A DNA stretch of 64,000 bases from Sideroxydans sp. (lineage in GTDB: Bacteria > Pseudomonadota > Gammaproteobacteria > Burkholderiales > Gallionellaceae): assembly GCA_028710605.1 (NCBI GenBank), contig JAQTTU010000011.1:1-64000 (forward strand), written 5' to 3'. Position 1 is the stretch's first letter. The number at the start of each line of letters is the position of its first letter. A program made the translations under genes and the position numbers. Under the pieces are notes generated by a model that worked only from the letters and a program-made list of their open reading frames with translations, searched no databases and was not told the DNA's origin. This document shows positions 4,305-60,048 of the stretch, piece by piece.

Positions 4305-5945
4305 ATGTACGCCTACTACACCCAACTCAAAGAACCGGAAATCACGCCGTTCAAAGCGGGATTCCTGTTCCTGCTGTGCGCCGTCTGGATATTCACCGGG
4401 CTGATCGGTCACGACCCGTGGAAGCCGGATGAAGCCTACAGTTTCGGGCTGGTGTATCACATCATCCAGAGCGGCGATTGGCTGGTGCCGACGCTGGCGG
4501 GCGAACCCTATGTGGACAAACCGCCGCTGTATTACTGGACGGCGGCGATCTTCGCCAAAACGCTCGCGCCGCTGCTGCCGCTGCACGACGGTGCGCGGCT
4601 CGCATCGGGCTTCTACACCGTACTCACGCTGCTGTTCGCGGGAATGACCGGGCGCGAACTGTTCGGCAACAATCGCGGCTGGCCGGTCGCCATCATCCTC
4701 ATCGGCTGCCTCGGCATGCTGGTGCGCGCGCACGAAATCCTCACCGACAACGCGCTGCTCACCGGCTGCGCCATCATGCTCTACGGCTTCGCCCTCAGCC
4801 TGCGCCGCACCACGCTCGCGGGCGTATTTATCGGCCTCGGACTAGGGCTAGGCTTTCTCAGCAAAGGCTTCATCGCGCCGTTTTTATTTCTATTCATCAG
4901 CATCGCACTGCTGCTGTTCCGCAACTGGCGCACGCGCGAATATTTCACCGCGCTGGGCATCGCCGTTTTGTGCGCGCTGCCGCTGCTGGTCGTGTGGCCG
5001 CTGCTGCTGTACCTGCATTCGCCCGCGATGTTCATCGAATGGGCGTGGACGCGCAACATCGGACGCTGGTTCGGCTTCGCCGCCAGCGGCGATTTCCGCG
5101 AAGTGTTCTATTACCTGAAAGCCCTGCCGTGGCTGGCCTGGCCCGCCGCCCCCTTGGCCGCGTGGACGGTGTGGGAAGCGCGCAAACGGATATGGCGCGA
5201 GCCGGAATTCCAACTGCTGCTGACCAGTTTCCTCGTCATGTTCGCAGTGCTGAGTTTCGTGCCGGACATCAACGACCAGAACGCCATGCCCATGCTGCTG
5301 CCCATCGCGCTGCTGGCCACCGCATCGCTCTCCACCTTGCGGCGCGGCGCGGCCAACGCGCTCGACTGGTTCGCCATCATGACCTTCGCCCTGCTCGCCA
5401 TCGTCTTCTGGTGGGGCTGGGGCGGCCTGCTGCTCGACAACAAAGCCAAGATCACCTGGTGGTTGAAAAATTACCAGCCCGGCTTCGAACCGGATTTTTA
5501 CGCCGTCCCGTTCTGGATTGCCGCAGCCGCAACCGTGCTGTGGATCGCCATCGTGTGGCGCGTCGGCCGCTCCGTGCGCCGCTCGCTCATCAACTGGGCG
5601 GCCAGCATCAGCCTGCTGTGGATACTCGCCATGACCATCTGGCTGCCCTGGCTGGACACCGGCAAAAGCTACCGCTACATGGTGGTTGACCTGAAAAAAA
5701 ATCTGCCGCAAAAATACAAATGCATCGCCGGGGTCAACATCGGCGACAACCAGGCCGCCATGCTGCAATACTTCGGCGACATCAAACCGCGCACCCACGC
5801 CTCCTACGTCTGCGACCTGCTGCTGGTACAAGGCAACCGCATCTCCAAACCCATAGAAGACGAAATCGGCTGGGACAAAATCTGGGAAGGCGGACGCAAA
5901 GGCGACACCAACGAACGGTTCAGGTTGTATAAAAGGTTGAAGTGA
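4305..5945 (+). CDS. ArnT/PMT-family glycosyltransferase (GT39/GT83-like), membrane
   Basis: A polytopic inner-membrane glycosyltransferase that would move a sugar from a polyprenyl-phosphate carrier to an outside acceptor such as lipid A or a protein; the actual donor and acceptor are not known. The 546-aa protein has about 12 hydrophobic segments. DPWKPDEAY near 37-45 contains the acidic residue of the first periplasmic loop typical of this fold, followed by the VDKPPLYYW signature near 68-76. Its ATG abuts the stop of the M48 gene with no gap, which implies translational coupling. Confidence 0.85.
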   Translation: MYAYYTQLKEPEITPFKAGFLFLLCAVWIFTGLIGHDPWKPDEAYSFGLVYHIIQSGDWLVPTLAGEPYVDKPPLYYWTAAIFAKTLAPLLPLHDGARLASGFYTVLTLLFAGMTGRELFGNNRGWPVAIILIGCLGMLVRAHEILTDNALLTGCAIMLYGFALSLRRTTLAGVFIGLGLGLGFLSKGFIAPFLFLFISIALLLFRNWRTREYFTALGIAVLCALPLLVVWPLLLYLHSPAMFIEWAWTRNIGRWFGFAASGDFREVFYYLKALPWLAWPAAPLAAWTVWEARKRIWREPEFQLLLTSFLVMFAVLSFVPDINDQNAMPMLLPIALLATASLSTLRRGAANALDWFAIMTFALLAIVFWWGWGGLLLDNKAKITWWLKNYQPGFEPDFYAVPFWIAAAATVLWIAIVWRVGRSVRRSLINWAASISLLWILAMTIWLPWLDTGKSYRYMVVDLKKNLPQKYKCIAGVNIGDNQAAMLQYFGDIKPRTHASYVCDLLLVQGNRISKPIEDEIGWDKIWEGGRKGDTNERFRLYKRLK

Positions 5946-39386: not shown

Positions 39387-39575
39387 CTCGATACCAAGCG
39401 ATACCAAGAAATATTTTTCTATAAACGGCGGAGCCAGCCCGGTAGGGCGCAATAACCAACGGACATTGCGCCGCATAAGGAATAACTAAACATCCGGTGC
39501 AATGCGCTACGCTTATTGCACCCTGCGAATTCAAAAACCAATTGCGTGAAGATGCCCGAATCTAGGGCGTTCCCA

Positions 39576-39860
39576 TCAAGCCCCCAGATACGCCCGCTGC
39601 ACCGCATCACCCCCCAGCAAGTCATTCGCCGCACCCGACAAGGTGCTCGCCCCGCTCTCCAGCACGTAGCCGCGTTGCGCGGCTTCGAGGGTGAGCTTGG
39701 CGTTTTGTTCGACCAGCAAAATCGTCACGCCTTGTGCGGAAATGTTGCGGATGGTTTCGAAGATTTTTTCCACCATCAGCGGCACGAGCCCCATGCTGGG
39801 TTCGTCGAGCATGAGCAAGGTGGGGCGGCTCATCAGGGCGCGCGCCATGGCATCCATATT
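39576..39860 (-). pseudogene. Duplicated 3' end of livF
   Basis: About 93 codons from MARALMSRPTLLMLDEPSMG (Walker B) to the AYLGA stop, nearly identical to the end of intact livF at 40777. Homology begins 28 bp after the stop (39548) and stops near 39857; the offset between copies is exactly 1201 bp. The Walker A and signature parts are absent, so it is not functional. A 104-aa frame that extends a few codons upstream is chance. Toxin-antitoxin genes lie between the copies. Confidence 0.9.
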
Positions 39861-39943
39861 GTTCGCCAGTGCTGAATGGTATTGACGCACGCATGATTGT
39901 CAGCGACGATGATCTATGCCATACAACATGATGGAGGTCAGTG

Positions 39944-40216
39944 ATGAACACTCTGAGCAACATTGAATCTGAAATAGCGGCGCTGCCGCCCAACCTGCGC
40001 GCGGAGGTGCTGGACTTTGTGCAGTTCGTCAAGCAGCGGCATGGGCTGACGGGTGCGCATAAGGCTGTTGTTACCACATCGGAATCGGGAGATTCGCCTT
40101 TTTTTCAAGCGTTGGATGCGGCGGGGTTGATCGGCTGTATCGAAAGCGATGAGCAGCTTTCTACCACTTACAAAAGCAAACTTGATTTTTCGACCAAGCA
40201 CGGAGTTCAGCCGTGA
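39944..40216 (+). CDS. DUF2281-like antitoxin
   Basis: A 90-aa protein whose first half, IESEIAALPPNLRAEVLDFV and then QFVKQRHG, matches the DUF2281/VapB-like family often paired with PIN toxins. ATG 39944 lies five bases after GGAGGT. The PIN gene's GTG overlaps its stop (GTGA). Base composition is lower in GC than neighbours, which suits acquired DNA. Confidence 0.75.
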   Translation: MNTLSNIESEIAALPPNLRAEVLDFVQFVKQRHGLTGAHKAVVTTSESGDSPFFQALDAAGLIGCIESDEQLSTTYKSKLDFSTKHGVQP

Positions 40217-40635
40217 TTCTGGTGGACACCGGGGCTTGGCTGGCTTTGCTGGATCGCGGCGATGCTTACCACACTCGCTGCCGCAAATTCTTTCAGCACA
40301 ATCGGGAGCCGCTGATTACAACGTATCCCGTGCTGGTTGAGTGCGTGCATCTGATGTTCAGCCGGATCGGTGTTGAGAAAACACTGGGTTGGTTGGAAAC
40401 ATTGCGTACTCAAGGCGTGAGCGTTTTTGCCATGGGGACGGAACATCTGCCCAGCCTCTCAGCCTTGATGCAGCAGTACGCTGATTTGCCGATGGACTTG
40501 GCGGATGCTTCGCTTGTGCTGTTGGCTGATGAGATCGGCGAAGGGCGTATTGTTAGCTCGGATGAGCGCGATTTTCACGCTTACCGCTGGAAAAATCAGC
40601 ATCCATTCCGCAATCTGCTGCTGGAGCAGGATTGA
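40213..40635 (+). CDS. PIN domain ribonuclease toxin (VapC-like)
   Basis: A 140-aa PIN protein. The acidic active site is complete: Asp5 (LVDTGAWLALLD), Glu near 43 (VLVECVHLM), Asp near 95-99 (MDLADASLVLLAD) and Asp near 117 (SSDERDF). It would cleave RNA and be held inactive by the upstream antitoxin, with which it overlaps by 4 bp. The GTG start is fixed by the overlap. Surrounded by two copies of the livF 3' end. Confidence 0.83.
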   Translation: MILVDTGAWLALLDRGDAYHTRCRKFFQHNREPLITTYPVLVECVHLMFSRIGVEKTLGWLETLRTQGVSVFAMGTEHLPSLSALMQQYADLPMDLADASLVLLADEIGEGRIVSSDERDFHAYRWKNQHPFRNLLLEQD

Positions 40636-51936: not shown

Positions 51937-52578
51937 TCAGTTTGGCTTGCTGATACCTGGTGTGGGAAAAGGCCAAGTCGCAGCCGGACGCACAGGAGCC
52001 GGAGCGGATGGAGCCGGTGCCGCAGCTGCCGGAGCGGCTACTGGCTTGGCTACTACTGCTGCCGGTTTCTTCGCTACAGCTTTCTTGGCGGCGGGTTTCT
52101 TTGCTGCCGGTTTTGCTGCTGCCGGTGCCGCTGCCGGTTTCTTGGCAACTGCTTTCTTGGCAACTGCTTTCTTGGCTGCTGCCGGTTTTTTGGCTACAAC
52201 TTTCTTGGCTGCTGCCGGTTTCTTCGCTACAGCTTTTTTGGCAGCGGGTTTTGCTGCTACCTTTTTGGCTGCGGGCTTCTTGGCAACGACTTTCTTGGCT
52301 GCTGCCGGTTTCTTCGCTACAGCTTTTTTGGCAGCGGGTTTTGCTGCTACCTTTTTGGCTGCGGGCTTCTTGGCAACGACTTTCTTGGCTGCTGCCGGTT
52401 TCTTCGCTACAGCTTTTTTGGCAGCGGGTTTTGCTGCTGCTTTTTTAGCTGCGGGCTTCTTCGCAACGGCTTTCTTTGCAGCCGCTGGTTTCTTGGCTAC
52501 AACCTTTTTGGCAGCGGGAGCTGCTTTCTTGGCTGCGGGCTTCTTTGCTGCTGGTTTAGCTTTCTTTGCTGCTACCAT
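51937..52578 (-). CDS. Lysine/alanine-rich histone H1-like protein
   Basis: A 213-aa very basic DNA-binding protein made almost wholly of AKKPAAK and KKVVAKK repeats, like AlgP, HctB and eukaryotic H1 tails. No globular domain is seen; the last 40 residues turn proline-rich (AAAPAPSAPAPVRPAATW). GGAGG precedes ATG 52578. Probably compacts DNA or modulates transcription. Repeat number is likely to vary between strains. Confidence 0.85.
   Translation of the reverse strand: MVAAKKAKPAAKKPAAKKAAPAAKKVVAKKPAAAKKAVAKKPAAKKAAAKPAAKKAVAKKPAAAKKVVAKKPAAKKVAAKPAAKKAVAKKPAAAKKVVAKKPAAKKVAAKPAAKKAVAKKPAAAKKVVAKKPAAAKKAVAKKAVAKKPAAAPAAAKPAAKKPAAKKAVAKKPAAVVAKPVAAPAAAAPAPSAPAPVRPAATWPFPTPGISKPN
52201..52470. 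repeat. 90-bp tandem repeat, three copies, in the H1-like gene
   Basis: 52201-52290 and 52291-52380 are identical 90-bp units; 52381-52470 is a third copy with several changes at its end. Each unit encodes 30 residues, so copy changes keep the frame. Confidence 0.93.
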
Positions 52579-54040: not shown

Positions 54041-56917
54041 TCATTGGCATGCTTCGCACTCCGGGTTATCAATCGAGCAAAACTTGTTTTCTTCCACCGG
54101 TGCGGCTGACAGTTCGCCCATGCCGCCGCTGTTCGATACGGCATTCAACGCACCGGCGCGCGAGGTGGATTTTTCTGCCGAGGTTGCACCCATGGCACGC
54201 AGGTAATAGGTGGTCTTCAAACCGCGCACCCACGCCAGCTTGTAGGTTTCGTCCAGCTTGCGCCCGGACACACCGGACATGTAAATATTGAGCGATTGCG
54301 CCTGATCTATCCATTTCTGACGACGCGAGGCGGCTTCGATCAGCCACTGCGGCTCGACCTCGAACGCGGTGGCGTACAGCTCGCGCAAGTCGGCGGGAAT
54401 GCGGTCTATCTTGGCCAGGCTGCCATCGAAATATTTGAGGTCGGCAATCATCACTTCATCCCACAAGCCGAGCGCTTTCAGGTCTTTCACCAGATGCTCG
54501 TTGATGACGGTGAACTCGCCGGACAGATTCGATTTCACGAACAAGTTCTGGTAAGTCGGCTCGATGCAGGCCGACACGCCGATGATGTTGGAGATGGTCG
54601 CCGTGGGCGCAATCGCCACACAGTTCGAGTTGCGCATGCCGAATTGACGAATGCGCGCGCGCAACGCTTCCCAATCCATGCTGGACGACATATCCACTTC
54701 GACATAGCCGCCGCGCTGTTCGCGCAACATGTTCAAACTATCCTGCGGCAGAATGCCTTTATCCCACAAGCTGCCGCGATAGCTGGCGTAGCGTCCACGC
54801 TCTTCTGCCAGTTCGGAGGATGCTAGGTAGGCGTAATAACACACCGCCTCCATCGAACGGTCGGCGAACTCGACTGCCGCTTCCGACGAATAGGGAACGC
54901 GCAAATCGTGCAGGCAATCCTGGAAGCCCATGATGCCTAGGCCGACCGGACGGTGCTTGAGGTTGGCATTGCGCGCCTTGGCCACCGCGTAATAGTTGAT
55001 GTCGATCACGTTATCCAGCATGCGCATGGCAGTGCTCACCGTGCGTTTGAGCTTGTCGTGGTCTATCTGTCCCGCTTGCGCGTGCCCTTGCGGATACAGA
55101 TGCGCGGCCAGATTGACCGAGCCCAGATTGCACACCGCGATTTCGCTGTCCGACGTGTTCAACGTAATCTCGGTACACAGATTGGAACTGTGCACCACGC
55201 CCACATGCTGTTGCGGGCTGCGGATGTTGCACGGGTCCTTGAAAGTGACCCAAGGATGTCCGGTCTCGAACAGCATGGTCAACATCTTGCGCCACAGCGA
55301 CTGCGCCGGGACTTTCTTGAACAGCTTCAGTTCGCCGCTGGCAGCCTTGGCTTCATAAGCCACATAAGCCTTCTCGAATTCGGTGCCGAACTTGTCGTGC
55401 AGGTCGGGGCAGTTCGACGGCGAGAACAGCGTCCACTCCGCCCCTTCCATCACGCGCTTCATGAACAGGTCGGGAATCCAGTTCGAGGTATTCATGTCGT
55501 GCGTGCGGCGGCGGTCGTCGCCGGTGTTCTTGCGCAGTTCCAGAAACTCTTCGATGTCCAGATGCCAGGTTTCCAGATAAGCGCACACCGCGCCTTTGCG
55601 CTTGCCGCCCTGGTTCACCGCCACGGCGGTGTCGTTCACCACTTTCAGGAACGGCACCACGCCTTGCGATTTGCCGTTGGTACCTTTGATGTGGCTGCCC
55701 AAAGCGCGCACGTTGGACCAGTCGTTGCCCAGGCCGCCCGCAAACTTGGACAGCAGCGCATTCTCTTTCAACGCCTCATAGATGCCGTCCAGATCGTCCG
55801 CCACCGTGGTCAGATAGCACGATGACAACTGAGAGCGGCGCGTACCGGCATTGAACAAGGTCGGCGTGGAACTCATGAAGTCGAAGCTGGACAGCAGGCG
55901 GTAGAACTCGATAGCGCGCTCTTCGCGGTTGATCTCGTTCAAGCTCAAGCCCATCGCCACGCGCATGAAGAAAGCCTGCGGCAATTCGATGCGCTGACTG
56001 TCGATGTGCAGGAAATAGCGGTCGTACAGCGTTTGCAGCCCCAGATAGTTGAATTGCAGATCACGGCTGGCATCCAGCGCCTGGCCCAGACGTTCCAGAT
56101 CGAACTGCGCCATGTCTTCGTTCAGCAACTCTGCCGCTATGCCGCGCTTGATGAATTTCGGAAAATATTCGGCGTAGCGCGATGCCATGTCGGCTTGCAC
56201 CACCGGCTCGCCGATAATTTCGCAGCAAATGTTGTTGAGCAACAGACGCGCGGTGACAAAACTGTAGGCCGGATCTTGTTCGATCAGCGTGCGCGCGGAA
56301 AGGATGGCGCACTTGCGCACCTCCTCGATGGCGACACCGTCATACAAATCCTTGAGCGTGAGCTTGAGAATCTTCTCCGCATCAACCGCAGCCCCCAGGC
56401 CGATGCAGGCCGACTCGATTTGCGCCAACAGCTCCGCCACATCCAGCGGACGCACCACCTCACCGTCTTTCACGTTCAGCGCATGCGCTATCTCGGCCTT
56501 GGCTTTGGAACGCTCGCGGCTGCGCTGCTCGCGGTACAACACATAAGAGCGGGCAACATCATGCTCGCCGGAACGCATCAGCGACAGCTCGACCTGATCC
56601 TGAATATCCTCGATATGGAATGTCCCGCCATGCGGCTGGCGGCGCACCAATGCACCCACCACGGCAGCCGTCAACTGCTCGACCATCTCGCGCACGCGCG
56701 CCGAGGCCGCACCTTGGCCACCGTTCACCGCGAGGAACGCCTTGGTCATGGCGATAGAAATCTTTGACGGTTCAAACGCGGCAACCGAACCGTTGCGACG
56801 AATTATTTTATATTGGTCCAGAGACATGCCCGAAGATGAAGCGGCGGAGTCGGAATCTTTGTGCGTGAACACGGCGGCGGAAGCAGATGGAAAAACACCT
56901 TCAGAAGCATGCAACAT
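54041..56917 (-). CDS. nrdA: Class Ia ribonucleotide reductase, alpha subunit
   Basis: NrdA reduces ribonucleoside diphosphates. The start MLHASEGVFP (ATG 56917) follows AAGGGGAG and gives 958 aa, somewhat long because of an N-terminal extension before the ATP-cone (YKIIRRNGSVAAFEPSKI near 37-54). Active-site segments are QLSSCYLTT, NLCTEITLNT and the C-terminal redox pair CEAC in PECEACQ. Two NrdR boxes lie upstream. Confidence 0.95.
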   Translation of the reverse strand: MLHASEGVFPSASAAVFTHKDSDSAASSSGMSLDQYKIIRRNGSVAAFEPSKISIAMTKAFLAVNGGQGAASARVREMVEQLTAAVVGALVRRQPHGGTFHIEDIQDQVELSLMRSGEHDVARSYVLYREQRSRERSKAKAEIAHALNVKDGEVVRPLDVAELLAQIESACIGLGAAVDAEKILKLTLKDLYDGVAIEEVRKCAILSARTLIEQDPAYSFVTARLLLNNICCEIIGEPVVQADMASRYAEYFPKFIKRGIAAELLNEDMAQFDLERLGQALDASRDLQFNYLGLQTLYDRYFLHIDSQRIELPQAFFMRVAMGLSLNEINREERAIEFYRLLSSFDFMSSTPTLFNAGTRRSQLSSCYLTTVADDLDGIYEALKENALLSKFAGGLGNDWSNVRALGSHIKGTNGKSQGVVPFLKVVNDTAVAVNQGGKRKGAVCAYLETWHLDIEEFLELRKNTGDDRRRTHDMNTSNWIPDLFMKRVMEGAEWTLFSPSNCPDLHDKFGTEFEKAYVAYEAKAASGELKLFKKVPAQSLWRKMLTMLFETGHPWVTFKDPCNIRSPQQHVGVVHSSNLCTEITLNTSDSEIAVCNLGSVNLAAHLYPQGHAQAGQIDHDKLKRTVSTAMRMLDNVIDINYYAVAKARNANLKHRPVGLGIMGFQDCLHDLRVPYSSEAAVEFADRSMEAVCYYAYLASSELAEERGRYASYRGSLWDKGILPQDSLNMLREQRGGYVEVDMSSSMDWEALRARIRQFGMRNSNCVAIAPTATISNIIGVSACIEPTYQNLFVKSNLSGEFTVINEHLVKDLKALGLWDEVMIADLKYFDGSLAKIDRIPADLRELYATAFEVEPQWLIEAASRRQKWIDQAQSLNIYMSGVSGRKLDETYKLAWVRGLKTTYYLRAMGATSAEKSTSRAGALNAVSNSGGMGELSAAPVEENKFCSIDNPECEACQ

Positions 56918-56982
56918 GTAACTCCCCTTTGAATTACTGAAGCCGATCCGGCCGAGAAGCCAAAACCAGCCGGAAAACAAAA

Positions 56983-57059: not shown

Positions 57060-57245
57060 GGCCTATATATTTTTTTGCGGCACTTGACGCGAGCGCCACC
57101 GCAAACGCGGGGCAGACGATCTCAAAAAACCCGTTGCCCGCAAAATTTTCAACGCAAAAATAAGCAGTCTTTTTGGACTACTCACTCATTTATTTCGGGG
57201 ATAGCATCTGGCCGCATCGAAAGCGGCGGATGGAGTTGCCGAGGA
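57060..57245. other. Gene-free stretch upstream of nrdA with a recurring AT-rich word
   Basis: GGCCTATATATTTTT occurs at 57060-57074 and again at 57465-57479 and 59266-59280, always on the plus strand. Nothing else is recognised in this stretch. The word surrounds the ampD remnant and the Sel1 gene. Confidence 0.6.
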
Positions 57246-57305
57246 TTACCTAGATTGTTTGAGATAGCGCACCCAGTCGAAAAACGGGCCGGGATCGGTT
57301 TGGCG
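57246..57305 (-). pseudogene. Remnant of the ampD 3' end
   Basis: Read on the minus strand this gives RQTDPGPFFDWVRYLKQSR and a stop, matching the last 20 residues of AmpD (KTDPGPFFDWVRYLKQVK) encoded at 59512. DNA identity is roughly 85 percent. Upstream codons do not match, and a stop lies just before. It is a duplicated gene end, separated from ampD by the Sel1 gene. A family E fragment (CCCTATTGACGCGCATCTTC) follows at 57361. No gene is seen from 57306 to 57660. Confidence 0.85.
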
Positions 57306-57670
57306 AGTTTGCGCCTGATGCTACGAAGCCAAACCCCGCGACTCCCATGCGTGGAGAAGCCCTATTGACGCGCATCTTCATCAAGTGGCGAGTTGGTTTT
57401 GTAAATTATTCGACCCTGAGGTCCCAAGACTTGACCTCCGGCTTTGGAAACGGGCAAAGCGGCAGGCCTATATATTTTTGAGCGTGGAAAGTTGCGGGGT
57501 TTGCTGATAGATTGCATGGACGGAAGCGGGAGGGGAAATGGCCTCAATATAAAATGTTGCAATGCAAGACCCCGTTGTTCAGTTGATTTACCCCAGAAAC
57601 CCAGTAACGAGCTTGGCAGGGCACTGGAGCGGGTCGGGGAAAAGTTTTTCTGCTCAGGAGGTTGATAACT

Positions 57671-59035
57671 TTGGGATGTCACAGGATGGTTGCAGCACGC
57701 TTTCTAATATTGCCTGTAGTGTTGTGGTTAACCGGCGTGGTGCCAACGACGCTGGCCCAAACAGCAGCAGAGGGCGCGCCGACACCGGAGAGCATCAATG
57801 CTGCCTTGGCGAGGCGTGCAGAATTTGAGCGCAAAGCACTTTCTGGTGATGTTTACGAGGCAAGCAGGTTGTGCCTGATAACGGGCGGCCCGCAACGAAT
57901 CAAATGGTGCAAGCTGTCTGCCGAATTGGGTGACTATGAAGCCCCGTTTATTCTTGCGCGGGAATATCTGTTTGGATGGCATGTTCCCGCCGATATCGTT
58001 GAGTCGATGCGCTGGGAACGTATCTCAGCCGAACGGGGTAGCGGCGTATCGCGTGCGCAGCTCGGTCAAGCCTATCTTTTCGGTATCGGCGTTGCACCTG
58101 ACGAAGCGCAAGCGGGATATTGGATCAAGCGTGCGGCACGTGCCGGACAGCGTTCTTCATTCTACTGGATGGGTTGGCTGGCAGAGAATGGCCGTGGCGA
58201 AGTCAAACAGGATTACTCGGAAGCTATACGCTGGTACCAGAAACTGGAATATGCTGATGGCGATCAACGCGCATTTTTTCGACTCGGTATGCTTTATGCG
58301 CGGGGACAGGGTGTTGCGGCTGATCCTGTCAAGGCACAGAAATATTTTACGACCGCTGAGCGGATGACACGTGCCTTCTCAAACTTTGTCAGCGGAGGAA
58401 CAAATAGCATCAGTATGTCTTACCGGGCAAGCGAATCGAGACCATTTTTTGCCGACGAACCCGGTCAGATCGCACAGGCGCGGGAACGCGCGATGCAACC
58501 GCAAGGCGATGCCGAAAGTGAGTTTTACCTAGGGCAGGTTTATGCCTCTGGCTTGAGTGTGGTCGAAAGTGAAGAGGAATCCTTCAAGTGGTTCATGCGC
58601 GCCGCTCAACATGGTCACATTGCCGCCCAATACAATGTAGGTCAGCTATATAAGAGCGGCGTTGGCACTGGTATCGGCCGCAATGAATTGGAAGCGATGT
58701 ATTGGTTTGGCAAAGCGAGCAAAGCAGGCGATACCCGCGCCACTTATGCGTGGGGAATGATGCGCCTATATCCCAAAGACACCAGTTTGCAAGATGCCGA
58801 TTTGGGTCTGCGCTTGGTGCGTGAGGCGGCAGACAAGGGTGAACCAGAGGCGCAAGAGATGCTGGCGAATTTTTATGCGCTGGGCAAGTTTGTTGGGCAA
58901 GACCTGAAGCTGGCCGAGCAATGGTGGCAACGCAGTGTCGAGCGCACGGTGGAAATGCGCAAGCAACAAATTGATCTTTGGGACATTAGAATCCCGCCGA
59001 TTTCCTTGCCACAAAGAATCAATGAAAATCAATAA
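57671..59035 (+). CDS. Sel1-repeat protein, periplasmic
   Basis: About 450 aa with a signal peptide (hydrophobic core LILPVVLWLTGVV, cut after LAQ) and at least seven Sel1-like repeats of 36 residues, for example RAQLGQAYLFGIGVAPDEAQ, AFFRLGMLYARGQGV and AQYNVGQLYKSGVGTG. Such proteins are scaffolds in the periplasm. The start is uncertain: GGAGG at 57657 best suits the TTG at 57671, while the ATG at 57686 begins the cleanest signal peptide. It lies between an ampD remnant and ampD and has no operon partner. Confidence 0.85.
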   Translation: MGCHRMVAARFLILPVVLWLTGVVPTTLAQTAAEGAPTPESINAALARRAEFERKALSGDVYEASRLCLITGGPQRIKWCKLSAELGDYEAPFILAREYLFGWHVPADIVESMRWERISAERGSGVSRAQLGQAYLFGIGVAPDEAQAGYWIKRAARAGQRSSFYWMGWLAENGRGEVKQDYSEAIRWYQKLEYADGDQRAFFRLGMLYARGQGVAADPVKAQKYFTTAERMTRAFSNFVSGGTNSISMSYRASESRPFFADEPGQIAQARERAMQPQGDAESEFYLGQVYASGLSVVESEEESFKWFMRAAQHGHIAAQYNVGQLYKSGVGTGIGRNELEAMYWFGKASKAGDTRATYAWGMMRLYPKDTSLQDADLGLRLVREAADKGEPEAQEMLANFYALGKFVGQDLKLAEQWWQRSVERTVEMRKQQIDLWDIRIPPISLPQRINENQ

Positions 59036-59511
59036 ATCAATGGGGGCGATTGATTCCTGGACAGCAGAAATGGGGTTCAGACTCGATTTCTTTTCCATCT
59101 AAATCAATATTGTTGTTTGGTGAGTTCGGCTTGGGTCTTGTCGAGTTTGTCACTGCGGCCACCGTTGACGCGATGAATGTGCGCGGAGGAATGTATGTTT
59201 ATGTGAGCCAGTTGGATCATGTCCTTACGTTAGCTTGTGCCCTTATCTGGGTCAATGTGAAAAATGGCCTATATATTTTTCCTCCTTTACCGCAACGCCT
59301 TCCAATCGGCGATTTATTTCATGCACTTGAGGGCGAAGACCATATTCATTGACTCGTGAGCTATTGAAATATCCGGGTTTTACTAGATTTTTAAACACCA
59401 CCTCCTCGGGAAGGCGCATGGATAGGCGATCTACGTGATGCACATAGCGTAGATTCCCTATCCATGCGCTTCTTCACGAGGTTGGCGTTTAAAAACGGAA
59501 AAAAATCGAAG
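59036..59511. other. Gene-free stretch with a recurring word and a family E hairpin
   Basis: Holds the third GGCCTATATATTTTT (59266-59280) and a family E hairpin at 59408-59487, with arms GCGCATGGATAGGCGATCTA and CCCTATCCATGCGC. A 100-codon frame at 59050-59352 shows no family features and is left out. Confidence 0.6.
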
Positions 59512-60048
59512 TTATTTGACTTGCTTGAGATACCGCACCCAGTCAAAAAACGGACCCGGATCGGTTTTGCGCACGGGCGCGATGTCGGAATGCCCGACGA
59601 TGTGGCGGATGGGATAGCGGCGTTTGAGATAGCGGGTCAATCTGGACAAGGCTTTATATTGCAGCGAATCGTAGGGGACGGAATCGCTTCCTTCCAGTTC
59701 GATGCCGATTGAAAAATCGTTGCAGCGGCTGCGCCCTTGCCATTCCGACGCGCCAGCGTGCCAGGCGCGGCGATTACATGGCACGAACTGGATAATGCCG
59801 CCGTCGCGCCGCACCAGAAAATGGGAGGAGACTTTCACGCCCTGCAACTGCGCATAATATGGATGGGCGGTGCAATCCAGCGTGTTGGTGAAAAATTGCG
59901 CGATAGCCGAGCCGCCGAACTCTTCCGGCGGCAGGCTGATGTTGTGGATCACCAGCATAGTAACGGGCGTATGCGCCGGGCGCGCATCATGGTTCGGGGA
60001 AGCGATGCGCCGCACGCCGCTCAACCAGCCCTGCGCATTGAATTTCAT
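59512..60048 (-). CDS. ampD: 1,6-anhydro-N-acetylmuramyl-L-alanine amidase AmpD
   Basis: AmpD cleaves anhydro-muropeptides in the cytoplasm during cell-wall recycling, and its loss induces AmpC in some species. The 178-aa length is normal. Zinc ligands His35 (VIHNISLP), His153 (GHSDIAP) and Asp163 (KTDPG) and catalytic Glu117 (GIELEG) are present. Its 3' end is duplicated at 57246. It lies downstream of pilR, separated by a repeat. Confidence 0.94.
   Translation of the reverse strand: MKFNAQGWLSGVRRIASPNHDARPAHTPVTMLVIHNISLPPEEFGGSAIAQFFTNTLDCTAHPYYAQLQGVKVSSHFLVRRDGGIIQFVPCNRRAWHAGASEWQGRSRCNDFSIGIELEGSDSVPYDSLQYKALSRLTRYLKRRYPIRHIVGHSDIAPVRKTDPGPFFDWVRYLKQVK

What the first reader, a model, noticed from the sequence alone, without database searches (positions are those of the whole stretch)
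57246..59580. Second case of the same layout: Sel1 gene between ampD and a copy of the ampD 3' end
The last 18-20 codons of ampD recur at 57246-57305, and a Sel1-repeat gene fills the gap. Family E hairpins lie at 57352-57382 and 59408-59487. As at livF, the host gene is on the minus strand, cargo lies past its 3' end, and a duplicated end closes the cassette on the far side. Two cases in 64 kb suggest a common mechanism: family E-associated recombination at gene 3' ends, or a non-autonomous element that uses gene ends as attachment sites.
Basis: partly seen in the sequence, partly recalled or inferred. Interest (0 to 1): 0.8.

Follow-up and report, generated by a model that had tools for sequence, protein, structure and literature searches.

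The report
Foreign genes behind duplicated gene ends
In an iron-oxidising bacterium a foreign gene has been inserted just behind the gene ampD in a way that leaves ampD whole and strands a second copy of its last codons on the far side; the same arrangement recurs behind several other genes, where the passenger often looks like a toxin-antitoxin pair, and it looks like the scar of imported DNA that was anchored by homology at one gene end.

Summary
Confirmed: 57255-57305 repeats the ampD 3' end (51 nt, 88%), with a Sel1 gene between and a strong family E hairpin after the real ampD. It is a derived insertion: nrdA directly follows ampD in 17 of 20 relatives fetched; of 78 ampD loci tested elsewhere only the sister, Sideroxydans sp. 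DeMMO3_12, has the tail copy, with the same flanks but different cargo. The layout recurs in this genome at six other genes. Cargo there: Pfam-named toxins in three, a PIN protein in one, probable toxin-antitoxin parts in two. One mirror case duplicates a gene start, and no E arm was found at parC or mutS, so neither 3'-end attachment sites nor family E recombination explains it. At mutS of a relative, related species agree with the stranded copy at 15 of 17 differing sites: there the functional gene carries the imported tail. Elsewhere polarity is unclear or points to a decaying copy, and in the sister two cargoes lie behind parC and mutS without a detectable tail copy. Best explanation: one-ended homologous import (single crossover of a small circle, or homology-facilitated illegitimate recombination), a known mechanism; the recurrence behind core genes is the new part.

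The parts
59512..60048 (-). ampD, full-length host gene whose 3' end is duplicated
   Evidence: Amidase_2 E 2.7e-35; a match in 57 of 61 genomes searched, own included
59521..59571 (-). ampD tail, first copy of the direct repeat
   Evidence: 51 nt, 88% to 57255-57305
57255..57305 (-). stranded copy of the ampD tail on the nrdA side; reads on to a stop at the equivalent codon
59388..59495 (.). family E hairpin directly after ampD
57352..57382 (.). short degenerate E-like hairpin near the stranded copy
   Evidence: by eye; not found by the arm scan at <=4 mismatches
57420..59066 (.). segment that differs from the sister species, which has another gene here; flanks on both sides align
   Evidence: blastn blocks of 91% and 84% on either side
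57662..59035 (+). Sel1-repeat cargo gene (GC 0.535; contig 0.577)
   Evidence: in 60 relatives the best match by E-value is 38% over part of the protein
57445..57560 (+). promoter-like leader module upstream of the Sel1 gene, shared with other accessory genes of this genome and its sister; extent judged by eye
   Evidence: core at 57466-57491; 6 matches in G000, 8 in G017 at <=2 mismatches, reversed-pattern control 0
59073..59086 (+). copy (1 mismatch) of the motif GGGGTCAGACTCGA at the edge of the swapped segment
59104..59220 (-). 38-codon ORF between hairpin and cargo, conserved in the sister, no Pfam match for the sister's version
57060..57074 (-). AAAAATATATAGGCC box upstream of nrdA; marks the ancestral ampD-nrdA spacer
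   Evidence: box or a close variant with the following CTTGCAT in 18 of 20 fetched relatives, the two misses having no nrdA on the stretch
54041..56980 (-). nrdA (ribonucleotide reductase large subunit), the ancestral downstream neighbour of ampD
39550..39857 (-). stranded copy of the livF tail
   Evidence: 308 nt, 89%
39941..40635 (+). cargo of the livF case: DUF2281-like protein, below cut-off (39941-40216), and PIN-domain protein (40213-40635), a putative antitoxin and toxin

Best explanation
The ampD locus is the scar of an import of foreign DNA. A DNA molecule carrying the 3' end of an ampD gene followed by cargo entered the cell, recombined by homology inside the resident ampD tail, and was joined on its other side so that the resident tail stayed behind next to nrdA. 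Two routes give this product: single-crossover integration of a small circle that carried only part of the gene, or homology-facilitated illegitimate recombination with the illegitimate join upstream of the gene end. Either way the host gene stays whole, nrdA keeps its own promoter region, and a 5'-truncated gene end remains. Cargo was later exchanged at the same place (Sel1 gene here, another gene in the sister). The same process struck other genes in this genome, often with toxin-antitoxin-like cargo. Addiction may help to keep such cargo against loss by recombination between the two tails. Shown: the derived insertion, the duplication, its recurrence, a mirror case, and in one relative (mutS) the imported nature of the functional gene's tail. 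Inferred: the same polarity at ampD, the route of entry, the kind of join, and the role of addiction.
For: Empty site: nrdA follows ampD directly in 17 of 20 fetched relatives, and within 91-402 bp in 31 of the 37 named loci (of 80, partly the same genomes) that have nrdA downstream; tail copy in 1 of 78 tested, the sister. The stranded copy sits on the conserved nrdA-upstream side. The sister has the same flanks with different cargo. Other cases: livF, parC, mutS, purB, a GGDEF/EAL-like gene on C15, an alpha-2-macroglobulin-like gene on C7. Cargo by Pfam: PIN, BrnT+BrnA, Phd/YefM+ParE, DUF4160, ParE over cut-off; DUF2281, HTH and ribbon-helix-helix below cut-off; none for the 80-aa protein at parC. 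Polarity at mutS of G005: 17 differing sites, majority of four related species with the stranded copy at 15 and with the gene at 2, one of these a tie. Mirror case at a gene start. The purB cargo of this genome lies behind mutS in the sister (90% aa identity, 87% DNA over 704 nt). ComEC present (also in 10 of 14 control genomes). Precedent: in E. coli conjugation 56 of 60 Lac- clones gave the PCR product of a partial duplication of the homologous gene end, 14 were sequenced (109-950 bp), ascribed to single crossover of a partly degraded, re-circularised plasmid (PMC3240628, passages seen).
Against: Polarity is clear only at G005 mutS. At mutS of this genome relatives side with the gene (34 against 8), and at livF and parC also mostly with the gene, which equally fits a within-genome duplication followed by decay of the copy; at ampD, purB and the C7 gene the tails are too short to tell. 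In the sister, no tail copy was found downstream of mutS or of parC although both carry cargo there, the parC cargo being related to that of this genome; so a tail copy is not a constant mark. The excess of synonymous differences (59 of 95) does not decide, since a constrained gene plus a neutral copy would give much the same. No donor molecule was looked for beyond the relatives. Classical HFIR usually leaves a deletion, not a duplication (PMC3240628).
Confidence: 0.64

Rival explanations
1. A dedicated non-autonomous element, moved in trans by a recombinase encoded elsewhere, uses gene ends as attachment sites and carries a replacement gene end, as some integrase-borne islands do at tRNA genes (recalled).
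For: Topology is identical (gene completed by the incoming copy, old end left on the far side); repeated use of gene 3' ends; the same cargo behind purB here and behind mutS in the sister; a shared leader module in front of several accessory genes.
Against: Tail lengths differ and no shared sequence is seen by eye (no motif search was run); a mirror case at a gene start; no recombinase among the cargo proteins scanned; no tail copy behind the purB-type cargo at mutS of the sister in the 3 kb examined.
Confidence: 0.13
2. Local duplication of the gene end inside the genome, with cargo inserted later between the copies; the far copy then decays.
For: At mutS, livF and parC of this genome the far copy carries more of the derived changes; the mutS copy has gaps that break the frame and a stop codon.
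Against: Needs two events at each locus; opposite polarity at G005 mutS. I did not search separately for gene-end duplications without cargo.
Confidence: 0.16
3. Recombination between family E hairpins creates the cassettes.
For: E arms or hairpins at the ampD, livF, purB and C15 cassettes, at the mirror case and at C7.
Against: None at parC or mutS; E arms within 200 bp of 96 of 917 predicted gene 3' ends, so proximity is common; E-E recombination would not duplicate a coding tail of varying length.
Confidence: 0.04
4. Decayed tandem duplicate of the whole ampD gene, the Sel1 gene being ancestral here.
For: The copy retains reading frame and stop.
Against: Sel1 protein without a close match in 60 relatives; nrdA directly behind ampD in 17 of 20 relatives; tail copy in 1 of 78 loci, the sister.
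Confidence: 0.03

Closest known systems
Single-crossover (Campbell-type) integration of a partly degraded circle, and homology-facilitated illegitimate recombination (PMC3240628; passages seen)
   Same: One gene end supplies the homology, foreign DNA enters behind it, and a partial duplication of that gene end (109-950 bp in 14 sequenced clones) remains.
   Different: There it was a laboratory experiment at lacZ; here it is a recurrent natural pattern at several genes, often with toxin-antitoxin-like cargo.
Sequential displacement of T6SS effector-immunity modules in Vibrio cholerae (PMC5361080; passages seen)
   Same: A conserved stretch is proposed to anchor incoming DNA, older parts are shifted downstream, cargo is a toxin-immunity pair.
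   Different: There the host gene is the effector itself and is displaced; here an unrelated gene is kept whole and only an old end is stranded.
Minimal mobile elements of Neisseria (search listing only; the definition is recalled)
   Same: Different cargo between the same conserved genes in related organisms, without mobility genes.
   Different: A duplicated gene end is not part of the definition as I recall it.
Integrase-borne islands at gene or tRNA 3' ends (recalled, not looked up)
   Same: Same topology: the gene is completed by the incoming copy.
   Different: No integrase among the cargo proteins scanned, no common attachment core seen.

Membership tests
One-ended homologous import (single crossover or HFIR) | Derived insertion at a conserved junction | tested here: met
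   ampD-nrdA:
One-ended homologous import (single crossover or HFIR) | Functional gene carries the imported end and the stranded copy is native | tested here: inconclusive
   met at G005 mutS (15 of 17 sites); not resolved at ampD; G000 mutS 34 to 8 the other way, explicable by decay
One-ended homologous import (single crossover or HFIR) | Variable length of the duplicated end, no fixed site | tested here: met
   31 to 282 coding nt at six genes
One-ended homologous import (single crossover or HFIR) | Either gene end can be used | tested here: met
   mirror case with GNAT cargo at C22 319552
Minimal mobile element (definition recalled) | Different cargo at the same site in related organisms, no mobility genes | tested here: met
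   ampD locus of this genome against its sister; cargo proteins Sel1 and one without Pfam match
Site-specific integrative element at gene ends | Common attachment core at all sites | tested here: inconclusive
   tails of six genes share no sequence by eye and are cut at different distances from the stop; no motif search was run
Site-specific integrative element at gene ends | Recombinase in the element | tested here: not met
   none among the cargo proteins scanned; a recombinase acting in trans was not excluded
Family E repeat (hairpin) mobilisation | Hairpin at the cassette borders in every case | tested here: not met
   no arm at <=4 mismatches within 200 bp of the parC or mutS cassettes
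Integron gene cassette | attC site and integron integrase | not tested
   no dedicated search was made

The most novel reading that the evidence does not exclude
Small cassettes, often toxin-antitoxin pairs, spread among these bacteria as 'gene-end cassettes': each carries the 3' end of a core gene as its docking sequence, docks behind that gene without harming it, can be exchanged for other cargo in place, and is held there because its loss by tail-tail recombination is punished by the toxin. The shared leader in front of several of these accessory genes would be their common regulatory or docking module.
Probability: 0.15. Interest if true: 0.85.

Novelty: new variant of a known kind. Interest (0 to 1): 0.55.

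Why it matters
How small toxin-antitoxin modules without mobility genes reach new places in chromosomes is, to my knowledge, poorly understood. Here is a signature, a duplicated gene end beside such cargo, that can be searched for in any genome and that records the site and sometimes the direction of each import. It also predicts a precise reversal (tail-tail recombination restores the empty site), so the idea that addiction protects such cargo can be tested.

Tried and rejected
Synonymous-difference test: 59 of 95 differences between tails and copies in six genes are synonymous against 23-29% for random changes. I first read it as proof of a foreign tail; a constrained gene plus a neutral copy would give about the same, so I do not use it as proof.

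Tail-versus-relative comparison at six genes: inconclusive at ampD, purB and the C7 gene, leaning to the gene at livF, parC and mutS.

Raw repeat rows dropped by eye. Of 14 tail rows I accepted 5 (ampD, livF, parC, mutS, purB), and the single tail row. Dropped: tandem paralogues or tandem duplications (C22 15053, C22 396171, C17 112442), hairpins or dispersed repeats (C24 289297, C17 102780 twice), a reciprocal row (C24 285953); left open: C24 205953 (a sensor-kinase-like gene with a 743-nt match at 76%) and C24 27860 (a doubtful ORF). Of 8 head rows I accepted 1 (C22 319552); of 6 head rows one is possible (C15 68786); the others look like dispersed repeats, paralogues or small tandem duplications. 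Six accepted tails against one or two heads is too few to claim asymmetry. The C7 case came from the targeted stretches (scan), outside the sample; other rows whose copies touch ORF ends (L139, L142, L148, L152, L156) were not accepted: L148 is a dispersed hairpin repeat by its sequence, the others were not examined further.

Motif GGGGTCAGACTCGA as an end of RAYT-associated DNA (recalled lead): none of the ten loci around Y1_Tnp matches (L127-L136) holds it at <=2 mismatches. Rfam at E<=0.5: three matches, none reaching its family's gathering score. Paper searches on toxin-antitoxin with illegitimate recombination or duplication gave nothing on point in their listings, nor did the motif, 'putative mobile promoters' or Sideroxydans with toxin-antitoxin (three listings). 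The remaining paper listing is.

Full report
Names. ampD, nrdA, the Sel1 gene and the cargo families rest on Pfam searches. parC, mutS, purB, pbpC, tauE, the alpha-2-macroglobulin-like, GGDEF/EAL-like, FAD-oxidase-like, restriction-modification-like and glycosyltransferase-like genes are named from my reading of their sequences, without a family search. G000 is the window's genome, G017 its sister.

1. What is there. ampD (59512-60048, minus) is followed on its 3' side by a 108-nt hairpin (59388-59495; -60.9 kcal/mol, z -9.4), then about 2 kb holding a Sel1-repeat gene on the other strand (57662-59035), then a 51-nt direct repeat of the ampD end (57255-57305 against 59521-59571, 88%), then the upstream region of nrdA. 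The copy keeps the frame and ends in a stop at the equivalent codon (by eye). blastn gives 4.8e-11 for the pair within the 64-kb window, so it is no chance match.

2. It is a derived insertion. In 17 of 20 relatives whose ampD region I fetched, nrdA follows ampD directly; one, the sister G017, has a gap of about 2.4 kb, and two have no nrdA on the stretch. In 80 named ampD loci (partly the same genomes), 37 have nrdA downstream on the same strand: 31 within 91-402 bp, five at 1.1-1.3 kb, and the sister at 2.35 kb; of 78 loci with more than 300 nt downstream only the sister has a duplicated ampD tail. The sister is named there as Sideroxydans sp. DeMMO3_12. The box AAAAATATATAGGCC upstream of nrdA, or a close variant, stands before CTTGCAT in 18 of the 20, the two misses being those without nrdA, so the stranded copy sits beside the ancestral nrdA-upstream region. 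In 60 relatives the best match to the Sel1 protein by E-value is 38% over part of it.

3. The cargo has been exchanged. Sister and window genome align from ampD through the hairpin and about 300 bp (91%), and again from about 57419 to nrdA (84%), but the middle does not align: the Sel1 gene here, a gene of up to 318 aa without Pfam match there. The motif GGGGTCAGACTCGA lies at the edges of the exchanged part, exact and inverted in the sister (L103 3198 - and 4640 +, with a third, weaker copy at 4418), with one mismatch at one edge here (59073 +).

4. It recurs. I scanned 1,261,478 of 3,359,881 bases of the genome (scans 34 and 50) plus 20 stretches around hairpins and motifs. Accepted gene-end duplications with cargo between: livF (308 nt, 89%; PIN protein, and a DUF2281-like protein below cut-off), parC (151 nt, 84%; an 80-aa protein without Pfam match, whose relative in the sister lies behind a BrnT-like gene at the same place), mutS (205 against 201 nt, 88%; Phd/YefM and ParE), purB (31 coding nt, 70 nt in all; DUF4160 and a protein with an HTH match below cut-off; that such pairs are toxin-antitoxin is recalled), a 1510-aa GGDEF/EAL-like gene on C15 (50 nt, 92%; ParE and a ribbon-helix-helix-like protein below cut-off), and an alpha-2-macroglobulin-like gene on C7 (52 nt, 87%; BrnT and BrnA). 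The acceptance of rows was by eye; dropped rows are listed under Tried and rejected. For the C7 gene, three of six relatives have pbpC immediately behind it, two behind short repeats, one has other DNA; for livF one of nine relatives (G007) has tauE directly behind, the others differ or run out. For parC, mutS, purB and C15 I did not establish an empty site.

5. Both ends of genes can be involved. At C22 319552 the first part of a FAD-oxidase-like gene and 37 nt upstream (204 nt in all, 88%) are duplicated 1.1 kb upstream with a GNAT gene between. One more possible head case lies at C15 68786. So 3' ends are not required.

6. Which copy is foreign. At mutS of relative G005, a copy of the tail lies about 2.4 kb downstream behind two glycosyltransferase-like genes. 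Seventeen sites differ between gene tail and copy in the last 126 columns; the majority of four related species agrees with the copy at 15 and with the gene at 2, one of these a tie. The copy matches those species at 89-95% over 111 nt, the gene tail at 81-84%, while the gene body matches at 91-96%. In 60-column windows the drop is clear only in the last 60 nt (G005 gene to G027, G020, G015: 0.80, 0.77, 0.82; those three among each other 0.83-0.92); further up the gene end is variable in all. Here the functional gene carries an imported end and the stranded copy is native. At mutS of the window genome the count goes the other way (34 to 8; that alignment runs a little beyond the homologous part), and at livF and parC also mostly towards the gene; this fits decay of the stranded copy but does not prove import there. 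ampD itself cannot be polarised: six differing sites, split about evenly and differently by relative.

7. Mobility of cargo, and cargo without a scar. The DUF4160/HTH pair behind purB here is 90% identical in protein, and 87% over 704 nt of DNA, to a pair behind mutS in the sister. In the sister no mutS tail copy was found in the 3 kb behind mutS, nor a parC tail copy behind parC, although both places carry cargo and the parC cargo is related to that of this genome. A tail copy is thus not a constant mark; it may be lost, or other joins occur.

8. Family E. Arms matching at <=4 mismatches number 167 (142 clusters) in the sample against 28 for the reversed control; 96 of 917 predicted genes have a cluster within 200 bp of their 3' end and 63 near the 5' end. 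Five of seven cassettes tested (the mirror case included, C7 not) have one inside or within 200 bp; parC and mutS have none. The association is incidental or weak.

9. Mechanism. Imported DNA that shares only one gene end with the chromosome can join by homology there. A circle carrying part of the gene plus cargo integrates by one crossover and leaves this product; PMC3240628 (passages) reports that 56 of 60 Lac- E. coli clones gave the PCR product of such a duplication, with 109-950 bp in 14 sequenced clones, and ascribes them to single crossover. Linear DNA with an illegitimate second join usually leaves a deletion (same passages), but a join upstream of the gene end would leave a duplication too. 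Selection would explain what is seen: only products that keep both the host gene and its neighbour survive. ComEC is present, though it is also in 10 of 14 control genomes.

10. Known or new. One-ended import and toxin-immunity cargo shifted behind conserved anchors are known or proposed (PMC3240628, PMC5361080, PMC2884548; passages seen). Cargo exchange between conserved neighbours is known as minimal mobile elements (listing; definition recalled). In the searches I did not find a recurrent natural pattern of gene ends duplicated around toxin-antitoxin-like cargo. Those searches cover open-licence papers only and saw listings only.

Noticed in passing
57445-57560 (+), and loci L379, L381, L385, L387, L389 (G000), L377, L380, L382, L384, L386, L388, L390 (G017): A leader of about 90-120 nt (GGCCTATATATTCTTGAGCGTGGAAAGTTGCGGGGTTTGCTGTTAGATTG...) stands in front of accessory genes that look, by eye, like MazF, RhuM, DUF6883, PIN and HEPN proteins, and the Sel1 gene. 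At <=2 mismatches it has 6 matches in this genome, 8 in its sister, one each in G004 and G015, none in the other 33 of 37 genomes searched. It may be a shared promoter or a mobile regulatory element.
   Followed up: partly
57060-57074 (-) and relatives: A box AAAAATATATAGGCC (or close variant) sits just upstream of a promoter-like TTGCAT...TAGAAT in front of nrdA in 18 of 20 fetched relatives, followed by a palindrome CACTAGATGTAGTG that recalls an NrdR box (name recalled). A regulator site is likely.
   Followed up: partly
59104-59220 (-) and L103: A 38-codon ORF (MIQLAHINIHSS... here, MNQLAHINIHHS... in the sister) with a promoter-like upstream region lies between the hairpin and the cargo; the sister's version has no Pfam match.
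   Followed up: partly
L251/L267 (G017 mutS) and C24 300647-301314 (G000 purB): The same pair of genes (DUF4160 plus an HTH-like protein, 90% identity) lies behind different core genes in two sister species.
   Followed up: partly
L296/L104 (G025): ampD of the next-closest relative is followed by a protease-like gene, a lysA-like gene and a Lys/Ala-rich protein (names by eye) instead of nrdA; nrdA is not on the stretch.
   Followed up: no
C24 25916-29029: A 175-nt direct repeat (79%) flanks 1.7 kb with ORFs of 310 and 154 aa; not resolved.
   Followed up: no
52026-52557: A tandem-repeat region that seems to encode a Lys/Ala-rich histone-like protein (reading by eye).
   Followed up: no
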